Below are positions 39,627 through 42,959 of a stretch of DNA of 44,003 nucleotides, one piece after another. A program made the translations under genes and the position numbers. Source of the DNA: Bacteroidales bacterium (lineage in GTDB: Bacteria; Bacteroidota; Bacteroidia; Bacteroidales; UBA932). How positions within the stretch are numbered: the stretch's first letter is position 1; the number at the start of each line of letters is the position of its first letter. The stretch is taken from contig JAFRXI010000014.1 in assembly GCA_017437755.1 (NCBI GenBank), positions 1-44,003 on the forward strand. Direction: 5' to 3'. The notes under the pieces are model-generated. The model was not told the origin of the DNA, did no database searches, and saw nothing but the letters and a program-made list of their open reading frames with translations.

Positions 39627-39692
39627 TCGCCGGAAGTCGGAGTTCTACTCCCTCTCCCGCCTTGGTGGTGGAATGGTAGACACGAGGGACTT

Positions 39693-40255
39693 AGACCGTT
39701 CTTTGAAATAATTATTTGTAAAACACGAAAGTAAAGCTTTAATTTGCCTCTACCATGAAAAAGAAGTATTCAGTAGAGGAGTTTAATAAGGCAGTGACAG
39801 ATAATGTTTCTGTAGCCGGTGTATTACGTCAATTAGGTTAAGACCGCTTGGCGGTTAAGGGAACGTTACAAAAAATGCACTGGTATATCTTACTGCGAAC
39901 AATGCCGTCTTTCGACTTGGCTTGGACGAGACATCCCTCTTGAAATTCATCATATCAACGGTATTAATACCGACAATAGAATTTCAAATCTTCAATTGCT
40001 TTGCCCTAATTGCCATGCCCTTACAAATAATTATCGAGGAAGAGCACATTTGAGTGCACTCTCTGAAAAGAGAGATGTAGAATGCCGTAAATTCAAGGAA
40101 ACCTTAACGGATCATGCCGAAGGCAATCTTGAGCCAAGCCTTGAAGAAGGAAGGTGCAGAGACTAGACACGGCACACCTAAAGAGTTTTGCTCCACGGTG
40201 AAGGAATAGTCCAGACCACAAACAGAAAGCTGGTGGCGAAAGCCATAGTGGTACG
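39693..40255 (+). ncRNA. Group I intron (IC3-like) in tRNA-Leu
   Basis: Helices that can be drawn by eye: P3 TGCCG 40115-40119 with CGGCA 40170-40174; P5 GGC/GCC around AATCTTGA (40122-40135); P6 CCTT/AAGG (40139-40142, 40151-40154); P7 GACTA 40161-40165 with TAGTC 40207-40211; P8 CACC 40175-40178 with GGTG 40197-40200; P9 ACCAC 40215-40219 with GTGGT 40248-40252, containing TGGC-GAAA-GCCA. The Q and R stretches GGCAATCTTGAGCC and GGTGCAGAGACTAGAC match my recollection of the cyanobacterial tRNA-Leu intron. The intron follows U34 and ends in G40255 (omega G). The P1 guide is not clear: AAGT near 39730 would pair with the exon ACTT but gives U-A rather than U-G at the splice site. Confidence 0.88.
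39755..40166 (+). pseudogene. Intron-encoded HNH endonuclease, degraded
   Basis: The frame from ATG 39755 encodes MKKKYSVEEFNKAVTDNVSV and then AGVLRQLG before a stop at 39839; this is the usual DNA-binding start of HNH homing proteins. From 39837 the +1 frame encodes 109 codons with a complete zinc-ribbon HNH domain: YCEQCRLSTWLG, IPLEIHHINGINTDNRISNL and LLCPNCHALTNNYRGR. Intact relatives have about 60 more residues between the two parts, so an internal deletion with frameshift is likely. The last 18 codons run through the intron core and end at the TAG inside P7. Confidence 0.8.
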
Positions 40256-40314
40256 AAAATCCCTTGGCCCGAAACGGCCGTATGGGTTCGAGTCCCATCC
40301 GAGGCACGAAAAAA

Positions 40315-40406: not shown

Positions 40407-40586
40407 CTTTGTAAGTTATTGATTTCCAAACACTCTGCAAAGCATTGGTTGTATCCCCCAAATTTGGTCACTTTTGGTCACCTTTTCCGCTTATTATTTG
40501 AATACACCGCTGGATTATATCAACCACTTGATAGACAAATCCTTCGATAGCCACCAAGAATACACGATAGCCACCGGTTATTTAGC
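40407..40586. other. Non-coding stretch with short direct repeats
   Basis: No convincing gene. It holds TTTGGTCAC twice (40463-40471, 40473-40481), spaced 10 bp, and CGATAGCCACC twice (40545-40555, 40565-40575), spaced 20 bp. Repeats in whole helical turns close to a tRNA end resemble arm-type sites of tyrosine integrases or the worn end of an integrated element. This role is inference. Confidence 0.35.
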
Positions 40587-41686: not shown

Positions 41687-42640
41687 TCAAAAAATGTCCT
41701 TCCCGGATTTAGGTTGACTCCGATTATGAAGGAGTTCAATATAGGCTGCCTTAAGTTCTTCGGACAGGAAGGATCGTTGAATCTCTTCTTCAAACTTTGG
41801 GAGAAGACTCAAATACTTCTTCTTAATCCTGTCGAATACAATCTCAGGAACGCCACAGGTCTTGAATGCTGCGACAAAGTCTGATTCCTTGATATGTTTC
41901 TTTTTCCCGTTAAGGTTCAGGGCCAGTTCTTCATCATCGGCCGGATTGATAATAGCTGCGCTTAAGAGATCATATGCCGGGGAGAGAACAGTTTCGCCGG
42001 CTGGGGAATACAGGGAGAAGTTCTTCAGGTGCATATCGTTGTTCCCTGTGAGCCATGAGAAATACACCAACTCCAGGAAGTCCACCATGTCCAATTGAGG
42101 GAAGGCGGAATACTTCCGTATGGCCTTTCCGATCTGTTCGTATGAACTCCGGTACTTATGTTCCGTTTGACGCTCAGTGAGCTGACACATATCCTCCATT
42201 GCGATCTTCTCCCCGTTTTTCGTCCTGTCAATCCGCTTAGTCAGGTAGCCGATGCTGCCGTCTTTCATCCTGATAAGCGTATGGGGAACGATCTTCAGTT
42301 TGGCGATTTCGGCCAGGTGCATTGTAAGATCTTCATTCTCGGGCAACATTGCGAAACGATCTGTCTGGGGTTTGAAGATATAGCCGCCCCAGAGCCCCAC
42401 GATTGTAAGCTTCTGGGAATCCTTATGCTTGTAGAGATTCAGAGACAGTTTCGGCTGGACGCCGGTCAAAGTGGTTTGAGACTTGATAACTTGGACTGCC
42501 AAGTCGTCCATCTCTTCGCGGGTGTAATCCAAAACGGGTGCTGACGCCGTCCCAAAGAATTTCCGACAACAGGACTTATGGAAATCAGCCTCTCCCGGGC
42601 CGAGGTCCTTATAGCAGAATAAACACTTACTCATCACCAT
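41687..42640 (-). CDS. HipT-like kinase toxin (HipA C-terminal domain)
   Basis: A 317-residue serine/threonine kinase of the HipA family lacking the N-subdomain, which is encoded separately just upstream. It begins with a zinc-ribbon-like segment (CLFCYKDLG...SCCRKFFG). The Gly-rich loop is TLTGVQPKLSL (T57-L-T59), the ATP-binding lysine is K90 (GGYIFKPQ), the catalytic loop is GNNDMHLKN (D202), and the metal-binding aspartate is in SPAYDLL (D224). HipA/HipT kinases inactivate aminoacyl-tRNA synthetases by phosphorylation and cause growth arrest. The start is the ATG at 42640, or 42634 which overlaps the hipS stop (ATGAGTAA). Confidence 0.88.
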   Translation of the reverse strand: MVMSKCLFCYKDLGPGEADFHKSCCRKFFGTASAPVLDYTREEMDDLAVQVIKSQTTLTGVQPKLSLNLYKHKDSQKLTIVGLWGGYIFKPQTDRFAMLPENEDLTMHLAEIAKLKIVPHTLIRMKDGSIGYLTKRIDRTKNGEKIAMEDMCQLTERQTEHKYRSSYEQIGKAIRKYSAFPQLDMVDFLELVYFSWLTGNNDMHLKNFSLYSPAGETVLSPAYDLLSAAIINPADDEELALNLNGKKKHIKESDFVAAFKTCGVPEIVFDRIKKKYLSLLPKFEEEIQRSFLSEELKAAYIELLHNRSQPKSGKDIF

Positions 42641-42959
42641 CCCCCTTTATCGGAATAACACTGACCGCGCCGATGCAGTCCTTACAGCAGAGAAGCAGAA
42701 GAGAAAACCTATCCAGTTCGCTTATGTCCGTATTACGGAGTGCAACATCCAGAAGCCACCCTTCTGGAATGAGGCCATCAAAGAACGGAAAAAGAACCGG
42801 AGACTTATATGGCTTTTCCGTCAAAGGAAGGGTAAGGCTGACGGGCTTGGCCTCAGCATCGGAAAGATACGCTGTATCATAAAGGAACTCATAGCCTTCA
42901 TCTGTCTCTTTCAGGATTCCGGCGGCTTTCCCTTTGTACTGAATCAATGCCGTTTTCAT
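42627..42959 (-). CDS. HipS-like protein (HipA N-terminal domain)
   Basis: A 110-residue protein equal to the N-subdomain-1 of HipA: KAAGILKETDEGYEFLYDTAYL, the PVSLTLPLTEKPY core, FPFFDGLIPEGWLLD and the end DCIGAVSVIPI. In E. coli HipBST the matching protein HipS is the actual antitoxin of HipT; the same is inferred here. It overlaps hipB by 4 nt and hipT by 14 nt, so the three proteins are translationally coupled. Confidence 0.87.
   Translation of the reverse strand: MKTALIQYKGKAAGILKETDEGYEFLYDTAYLSDAEAKPVSLTLPLTEKPYKSPVLFPFFDGLIPEGWLLDVALRNTDISELDRFSLLLLCCKDCIGAVSVIPIKGDGDE

What the first reader, a model, noticed from the sequence alone, without database searches (positions are those of the whole stretch)
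39659..40306. tRNA-Leu(UAA) interrupted by an IC3-like group I intron in a Bacteroidales genome
Seen: two tRNA halves that rejoin into a complete tRNA-Leu(UAA), split between U34 and A35, with a 563-nt insert ending in G and containing P3, P5, P6, P7, P8 and P9 pairings. Established: group I introns at exactly this site define the old cyanobacterial/plastid tRNA-Leu family. I do not recall them in Bacteroidota. Inference: either horizontal transfer of the intron or an independent bacterial lineage of it. The P1 guide is unclear (U-A instead of U-G at the splice site), so splicing competence is open.
Basis: partly seen in the sequence, partly recalled or inferred. Interest (0 to 1): 0.86.

Follow-up and report, generated by a model that had tools for sequence, protein, structure and literature searches.

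The report
Mobile self-splicing intron in tRNA-Leu
The leucine tRNA gene in this gut Bacteroidales genome is split by a self-splicing type (group I) intron that carries a decayed homing-enzyme gene, and intact versions of the same intron-plus-enzyme unit turn up in sister species and in tRNA genes of phages.

Summary
tRNA-Leu(UAA) is 39659-39692 + 40256-40306, split after U34 by a 563-nt group I intron (RF00028, 45.6 bits, E=2.5e-10, under the gathering score of 50). Covariation supports the core, 5 of 10 relatives pass gathering, and 12 sister genomes have the empty gene.

The missing P1 was found: guide GAGU at 40052-40055 pairs with exon ACUU, with the usual U.G. A broken HNH homing-endonuclease gene fills the P1 loop.

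The intron model matches 76 of 200 same-genus genomes, 59 strongly, and 2 of 392 others from the order. Of 96 distinct copies, 24 carry an intact HNH, 10 a broken one and 53 a bare short loop. Intron history rejects host history (AU p=0.0007): it moves between species.

Viral contigs hold tRNA-Leu(UAA) introns with the same guide, some with the same HNH. In some of these, and in 10 of 24 intact bacterial copies, the nuclease frame runs through the ribozyme core to a stop in P7'. Bacterial introns group with viral ones (95/96); direction is unproven.

Splicing was not tested. 22 of 25 intron-bearing genomes lack the joined junction. New variant of a known kind.

The parts
39659..39692 (+). 5' exon of tRNA-Leu(UAA), ends at U34
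   Evidence: ARAGORN with introns; exact empty sites in sister genomes
39693..40255 (+). group I intron, 563 nt, ends in G
   Evidence: RF00028 E=2.5e-10; model R1 246.6 bits, built from an alignment that includes this copy; covariation
40256..40306 (+). 3' exon of tRNA-Leu(UAA)
39689..39692 (+). P1 5' strand, exon ACUU
   Evidence: sequence; pairs with 40052-40055; guide octamer TTGAGTGC in all 17 loci
40052..40055 (+). P1 guide GAGU; G40052.U39692 wobble at the splice site
   Evidence: GAGTGC in all 95 introns with a located core, 93 TTGAGTGC and 2 ATGAGTGC (the locating pattern allowed one mismatch)
40049..40051 (+). P10 candidate UUU, pairs with exon 2 AAA 40256-40258
   Evidence: sequence; inferred
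39698..39704 (+). 5' strand of a 7-bp stem closing the HNH-bearing loop next to P1 (partner 40039-40045)
   Evidence: 32 of 34 intact or broken HNH-bearing introns show 7 of 7 pairs (the ends were located by fuzzy patterns of this motif, so the count leans towards pairing); coordinates
39755..40158 (+). broken HNH homing-endonuclease gene in the P1 loop and into the core: N-terminal piece in one frame, HNH motif in another, middle part missing
   Evidence: intact relatives
40059..40074 (+). P2 hairpin with GAAA loop
   Evidence: 4 of 6 pairs with changes on both sides
40083..40088 (+). P3 5' strand (partner 40169-40174)
   Evidence: 2 of 6 pairs with changes on both sides
40092..40097 (+). P4 5' strand (partner 40128-40133)
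   Evidence: invariant in 14 introns, so uninformative
40161..40165 (+). P7 5' strand GACUA (partner 40207-40211); the UAG of P7' is the stop of the long nuclease frame in relatives
   Evidence: invariant pairs; frame
40234..40245 (+). hairpin UGGC-GAAA-GCCA in the P9 region
   Evidence: 2 of 4 pairs with changes on both sides

Best explanation
[quoted passage not shown] RNA folding brings exon ACUU onto the guide GAGU; guanosine attacks after U34 and the terminal G marks the 3' site, giving the intact tRNA (inferred from anatomy). The intron was mobile: relatives carry in the P1 loop an HNH homing endonuclease that probably cuts intronless tRNA-Leu(UAA) genes, so that repair copies the intron in (inferred). 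In this genome the nuclease is dead and the intron persists as a splicing passenger. The same intron-nuclease unit sits in phage tRNA-Leu(UAA) genes, so phages are the likely route of entry (inferred).
For: Covariance hit; covariation; guide present in all 17 loci. Four other tRNA-Leu genes are intact and none is UAA. 22 of 25 intron-bearing genomes lack the exact junction GGACTTAAAATCC, while 7 of 7 empty-site genomes have it once. HNH in the intact relative L032: PF01844 above cut-off, PHROG 10822 4e-47; median dN/dS 0.081 on 29 usable of 276 pairs. AU test rejects the host topology: p=0.0007 using only host branches with support of 95 or more, 1e-89 with the full host tree. Viral introns with the same HNH in the P1 loop; bacterial introns group with 6 viral rows at 95/96.
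Against: No splicing or homing experiment. The RF00028 score of this copy is below gathering. 3 of 25 intron-bearing bins also hold an intact tRNA-Leu(UAA), on contigs of 3.9-4.5 kb, so mis-binning and a second copy cannot be separated; the junction search was exact, so a variant arm would be missed. Intron and host distances still correlate (Mantel r 0.31, reached by 1 of 5000 permutations), and the two intron families follow two host clades with one exception, so inheritance also matters; the host tree is one gene. 'All viral introns one clade' is not rejected (AU p=0.237), and the nuclease tree gives no direction.
Confidence: 0.82

Rival explanations
1. Dead tRNA relic: the intron no longer splices and another gene supplies tRNA-Leu(UAA).
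For: The HNH is broken; the bin is 85% complete, so a second copy could be missing; 3 of 25 intron-bearing bins show an intact copy.
Against: No intact tRNA-Leu(UAA) found in this genome nor in 21 of the 24 other intron-bearing genomes searched for the exact junction; joined exons fold; core helices present; UUA codons occur in 9 of 24 window genes counted (13 of 940 Leu codons).
Confidence: 0.08
2. An old vertically inherited tRNA-Leu intron, as argued for cyanobacteria and plastids (recalled), lost many times in this genus, with the HNH a late hitchhiker.
For: Two intron families sort with two host clades; weak but real host signal; empty sites are scattered.
Against: AU test rejects the host topology; the nearest intron is in the nearest host for only 2 of 26 genomes; near absence from the rest of the order, 2 of 392 other genomes; grouping with viral introns.
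Confidence: 0.12
3. Phages picked the intron up from these bacteria rather than the reverse.
For: Viral monophyly not rejected for the core (AU p=0.237); in the nuclease tree the bacterial and viral sets lie on opposite sides of one branch.
Against: In the midpoint-rooted core tree the bacterial group is a tip group inside viral diversity (95/96); the viral introns are more diverse, some with longer nucleases. Sampling by sequence pattern may bias this.
Confidence: 0.25

Closest known systems
Group I introns in cyanobacterial and plastid tRNA-Leu(UAA) (Xu 1990, Kuhsel 1990, Paquin 1997; recalled, no sequence compared here)
   Same: Same tRNA; same position U34/A35 and U.G at the 5' splice site (recalled for that family)
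   Different: Those are recalled as lacking endonuclease genes; here an HNH gene sits in the P1 loop of many copies and the intron moves between species
Group I introns in tRNA-Ile(CAU) of Betaproteobacteria (Azoarcus type, recalled); PMC8450103 passages mention tRNA-Ile2 introns in Acidovorax and Burkholderia
   Same: Similar core: loci L113, L114, L117, L118 and others matched the same core pattern
   Different: Other tRNA (ARAGORN anticodon CAT) and other guide; they fall in a separate group of 24 rows at 99/98, made of the 17 Ile-type rows, 5 others and 2 rows that I had labelled viral Leu
tRNA-Leu(UAA) and tRNA-Arg(UCU) introns of Beggiatoa and Thiomargarita (PMC4853749, passages)
   Same: Same gene interrupted outside cyanobacteria
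   Different: Type and structure of the tRNA introns were not determined there; no nuclease mentioned in the passages seen
Phage group I introns with homing nucleases (T4 td, SPO1, Staphylococcus phages)
   Same: Intron with homing nuclease in phages
   Different: Those are in protein genes; PMC3984707 (2014, passages) states that all phage introns observed to date were in protein-coding genes

Membership tests
Group I intron (RF00028) | Covariance match to the catalytic core | tested here: met
   45.6 bits, E=2.5e-10, full model; below gathering 50 for this copy, above it in 5 of 10 relatives tested
Group I intron (RF00028) | P3-P9 helices with covariation | tested here: met
   20 of 52 pairs of P2-P9 changed on both sides; P4 and P7 invariant and so uninformative
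Group I intron (RF00028) | P1 with U.G at the 5' splice site and terminal G | tested here: met
   TTGAGTGC in all 17 loci; GAGTGC in all 95 located cores; joined exons found in nature
Group I intron (RF00028) | Guanosine-initiated self-splicing | not testable with these tools
   needs RNA
IC3 subgroup | Subgroup-specific core and peripheral elements | tested here: inconclusive
   short P2 and P9 hairpins with GAAA loops seen; no subtype model run
Cyanobacterial/plastid tRNA-Leu intron family | Insertion between U34 and A35 of tRNA-Leu(UAA) | tested here: met
   that the family uses this site is recalled
Cyanobacterial/plastid tRNA-Leu intron family | Common descent with cyanobacterial introns | not tested
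   no cyanobacterial intron sequence was retrieved
HNH homing endonuclease | HNH domain | tested here: met
   intact relative L032: PF01844 25.6 bits over cut-off 21.4, PHROG 10822; the window's own fragments were not scanned
HNH homing endonuclease | Purifying selection as a working gene in relatives | tested here: met
   upstream of the guide pS 0.805, pN 0.212; median dN/dS 0.081 on 29 of 276 pairs
HNH homing endonuclease | Intact gene in the window | tested here: not met
   stops in all three frames and a missing middle
HNH homing endonuclease | Cuts the intronless allele | not testable with these tools
   needs protein

The most novel reading that the evidence does not exclude
A homing intron of tRNA-Leu(UAA) shared by phages and gut Bacteroidales in which one stretch of DNA serves as both ribozyme and enzyme: the HNH frame starts in the P1 loop, runs through the guide, P2-P6 and P7, and ends at the UAG of P7' (in some phages after a second domain in the P8 loop). 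Phage tRNA genes are its reservoir and vehicle, and one bacterial genus shows all stages of the homing cycle: empty site, active, decayed, nuclease-free.
Probability: 0.6. Interest if true: 0.8.

Novelty: new variant of a known kind. Interest (0 to 1): 0.68.

Why it matters
tRNA-Leu(UAA) introns are, as I recall, textbook examples of old, quiet group I introns whose vertical or horizontal history was long debated. Here the same site is held by a mobile form with its endonuclease, in one genus with every stage of the homing cycle side by side, and with matching units in phage tRNA genes. That makes the route of entry, the nuclease target and the cost of an intron in what looks like a single-copy, needed tRNA directly testable. 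[quoted passage not shown]

Tried and rejected

Second tRNA-Leu in G033 at C5:114320: the pattern matched, but ARAGORN finds no tRNA there.

Sister pair G023/G071 with different introns: dropped as proof of transfer, because G071 also has an intact tRNA-Leu(UAA) on a 3.9-kb contig and either contig may be mis-binned. The transfer tests were repeated on 26 of the 35 intron cores, those whose intron and TopA share a contig; 9 were dropped (G003, G005, G011, G012, G018, G025, G071, G106, G177), and with them the close pair G005/G098. The TopA tree used 55 of the 57 genomes; G003 and G079 were left out (TopA split or partial).

L253 and L254 matched model R1 weakly, stand on long branches and were not counted as introns of the site. 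L387, L383 and L400 were lost to the segment script, which also took only the first 60 bacterial introns. My note says 39 of 62 viral loci with a full core; the right count is 38.

Structure prediction of the HNH (alignment A3) was submitted and had not finished at six look-ups; nothing is taken from it. One search used wrong coordinates (24 aa) and gave nothing; no PDB relative at E 0.01. One search listed only the strongest tRNAs and was not used.

Literature searches. Judged by titles and abstract starts, plus passages of five papers, none reports this intron in Bacteroidales or introns in phage tRNA genes. PMC10136315 and PMC10999742 (one hit each) were not opened. The library lacks most subscription papers.

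Full report
WHAT IS THERE. The window is a whole contig (G000:C51) of a 2.88-Mb bin, 85% complete. A tRNA-Leu(UAA) gene lies at 39659-39692 and 40256-40306. Joined, the exons fold as an 86-base tRNA-Leu(taa); unjoined, ARAGORN with introns allowed reports (taa)i(35,563). Default ARAGORN finds nothing in the window. The 563-nt insert matches RF00028 at E=2.5e-10, 45.6 bits, just under Rfam's gathering score of 50, so the gathering scan listed nothing. Of 10 related loci, 5 pass gathering, at 51.1-55.2 bits.

STRUCTURE. Cores of 14 same-genus introns were aligned. The drawn P2-P9 structure has 95.5% of cells paired and 20 of 52 pairs changed on both sides (shuffled mean 8.2, 0 of 500 as high; slid versions 2-4); 'further pair types' is matched by 16 of 500 shuffles. 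P4 and P7 never vary and say nothing either way. The inner P8 hairpin and P9 hold several unpaired cells (76.8% and 87.1% paired). The guide TTGAGTGC is present in all 17 loci, 6 to 525 nt after the 5' splice site; in the wider set GAGTGC is present in all 95 located cores, 93 of them TTGAGTGC and 2 ATGAGTGC (the locating pattern allowed one mismatch). In the window it starts at 40050: GAGU 40052-40055 pairs with exon ACUU 39689-39692, giving the usual U.G, and UUU 40049-40051 can pair with exon-2 AAA (P10, inferred). The distance varies because some copies carry a gene in the P1 loop. A 7-bp stem (GYUCUUU with GAAGAGC; 39698-39704 and 40039-40045 here) closes that loop: of 34 intact or broken HNH-bearing introns, 32 show all 7 pairs, one 6 and one 5 (the ends were located with fuzzy patterns of the motif itself).

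THE GENE IN THE LOOP. The window shows a broken HNH gene: an N-terminal piece from 39755 in one frame, then the HNH motif in another, with the middle missing. The script's rule is mechanical: L040 counts as broken because it lacks an ATG, L103 as intact although its start looks frameshifted, and L038 is cut by its contig end. The intact protein of L032 is HNH by Pfam (25.6 bits, cut-off 21.4) and PHROG 10822 (4e-47). Upstream of the guide, pS is 0.805 and pN 0.212 over 276 pairs; dN/dS could be computed for 29 pairs, median 0.081. Where the frame overlaps the core the median is 0.267 (271 pairs). So the gene is, or recently was, under selection. A TTTG-N18-22-TAnnTTT motif, like the Bacteroidota promoter as I recall it, precedes 13 of 24 intact genes (shuffled mean 0.04, at most 1) and 1 of 5 viral ones checked.

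ONE SEQUENCE, TWO JOBS. In intact copies the nuclease frame does not stop at the guide. It runs on into the ribozyme core: 11 of 24 end in P6 (..NLEPSL), 10 of 24 at the UAG of P7' (..VKE), and 3 otherwise. The TTG-to-TAG distance is a multiple of three in 18 of 21 intact, 13 of 16 broken or residual and 36 of 48 nuclease-free copies scored. Shared descent makes these counts non-independent, but they fit the view that nuclease-free copies once carried the gene.

DISTRIBUTION. A DNA search of 61 genomes with follow-up gives, for the 37 same-genus genomes including this one: 19 with an intron (one of them, G021, a different intron at the same site; G004 cut before the core), 12 with the empty gene, 6 with no tRNA-Leu match. 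Model R1 matches 76 of 200 same-genus genomes, 59 of them at 110 bits or more; the other 17 are a second, diverged group or partial or weak matches. Outside: 2 of 392 other genomes drawn from the order, a few of which are same-genus or same-family, and 31 of 394 others from the phylum, with interrupted-tRNA calls of several kinds.

IS THE GENE NEEDED? Among the 38 tRNA matches of this genome, tRNA-Leu CAA, GAG, UAG and CAG are intact, and UAA exists only in split form. The exact joined junction GGACTTAAAATCC is absent from 22 of 25 intron-bearing genomes and present once in 7 of 7 empty-site genomes. The three exceptions are tRNA-Leu(taa) genes on contigs of 3.9-4.5 kb; two resemble the tRNA-Leu surroundings of other genus members, which suggests mis-binning but does not prove it. 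UUA codons are rare but used (13 of 940 Leu codons, in 9 of 24 window genes counted).

MOVEMENT. A TopA tree of 55 genomes (34 with this intron family, 10 with the second family, 11 empty) puts the two families in two host clades apart from G035, with empty sites scattered. Intron and host trees conflict. On 34 genomes the Mantel correlation is 0.21. On the 26 in which intron and TopA share a contig it is 0.31 (1 of 5000 permutations as high), so host signal remains, but the nearest intron is in the nearest host in only 2 of 26. The AU test rejects the full host topology (p 1e-89) and one limited to host branches with support of 95 or more (p 0.0007). G204 and G208 have identical cores, one with an intact HNH and one with an 8-nt loop. 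The host tree rests on one gene.

PHAGES. A search with the HNH protein gave 32 viral loci. 7 of the 32 hold the HNH followed by the intron core; ARAGORN of these tRNA-Leu(taa), and three (L468, L469, L477) look like one sequence. A core pattern gave 62 viral loci, including contigs just named. My script found a full core in 38 of 62, an HNH motif upstream in 21 of the 38, and in 7 of the 38 (5 distinct sequences) a P8 loop of over 230 nt with a frame open for 231-298 codons to the P7' stop. Proteins of three such contigs are 52-59% identical to L032 and have a C-terminal part that L032 lacks. In a 113-row core tree (60 bacterial introns of this family, 44 viral rows, 9 others) the 60 lie with 6 viral rows at 95/96, inside a larger group of 90 rows with 30 viral rows in all at 89/95. 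Their own node is weak (84/32), and the bootstrap had not settled. Viral monophyly is not rejected (p 0.237). In the HNH tree the 24 bacterial proteins are one side of a branch (100/100), next to three viral ones at 83/92; that tree carries a long-branch warning. So the link to phages is firm and the direction is not. The contigs are viral by IMG/VR's own listing. My checks are limited: tRNA arrays beside several introns, and PHROG hits for 5 of 8 neighbouring proteins, the clearest a phage ATP-dependent protease family at 8e-238 in L553. One neighbourhood (L527) shows an EcoRV-like enzyme and a methyltransferase. No isolated phage with the composite was found: tblastn of the L527 protein in INPHARED gave 41 records under 60% identity, and a DNA search with part of the L527 composite gave 2 weak hits.

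AGAINST PRIOR WORK. Passages of PMC3984707 (2014) state that all phage introns observed to date were in protein-coding genes. [quoted passage not shown] PMC4853749 (passages) reports interrupted tRNA-Leu-TAA and tRNA-Arg-TCT in Beggiatoa and Thiomargarita. PMC7886860 (passages) describes many group I introns in crAss-like phages, in protein genes. PMC3706429 (passages) concerns integration at tRNA-Leu and introns in protein genes. Nine searches listed nothing on this intron by title or abstract start; the library is partial. The kind is known; the nuclease in the P1 loop read through the core, the phage tRNA setting and the one-genus homing cycle are, as far as I could check, new. The genus was not named by any search; the named relatives are Bacteroidales MAGs, many from rumen.

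Noticed in passing
L241-L252, L054 (same genus): A second, diverged group I intron family occupies the tRNA-Leu(UAA) gene in another host clade of the genus.
   Followed up: partly
L382 (LR756511.1, 595-kb phage): tRNA-Leu-like intron with an HNH coding region just before the P6/P7 part of the core, that is in another loop: a separate nuclease placement.
   Followed up: partly
L234 vs L240 (viral contigs): Near-identical phage tRNA-Leu introns, one with an HNH gene directly upstream of the tRNA and one without.
   Followed up: no
L039, L120, L178, L225 (P1 loop): A P1 loop of 169-181 nt without the HNH motif; the parts printed (L039 whole, the others' first 85 nt) look unrelated to the HNH gene and inverted-repeat-like (CTTGTCAACGTGGC type in L039), perhaps a small mobile element.
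   Followed up: no
L383-L411 (other Bacteroidota): ARAGORN calls introns in other tRNA genes too: Leu(CAA), Leu(CAG), Arg(UCU), Gln(CUG), Thr; several with inserts of over 600 nt.
   Followed up: partly
window 40410-40480: Downstream of the tRNA a TTTGTAAGTTATTGATTT...AATTTGGTCACTTTTGGTCAC stretch resembles sequence after the tRNA in L050 and L053, perhaps an integration site (by eye).
   Followed up: no
window 41687-42959: Two ORFs that look like a HipA-type kinase pair (judged by eye, no profile run) downstream of the tRNA.
   Followed up: no
L527: An EcoRV-like restriction enzyme (PF09233, 4e-64) and a D12 methyltransferase lie near the phage intron.
   Followed up: no
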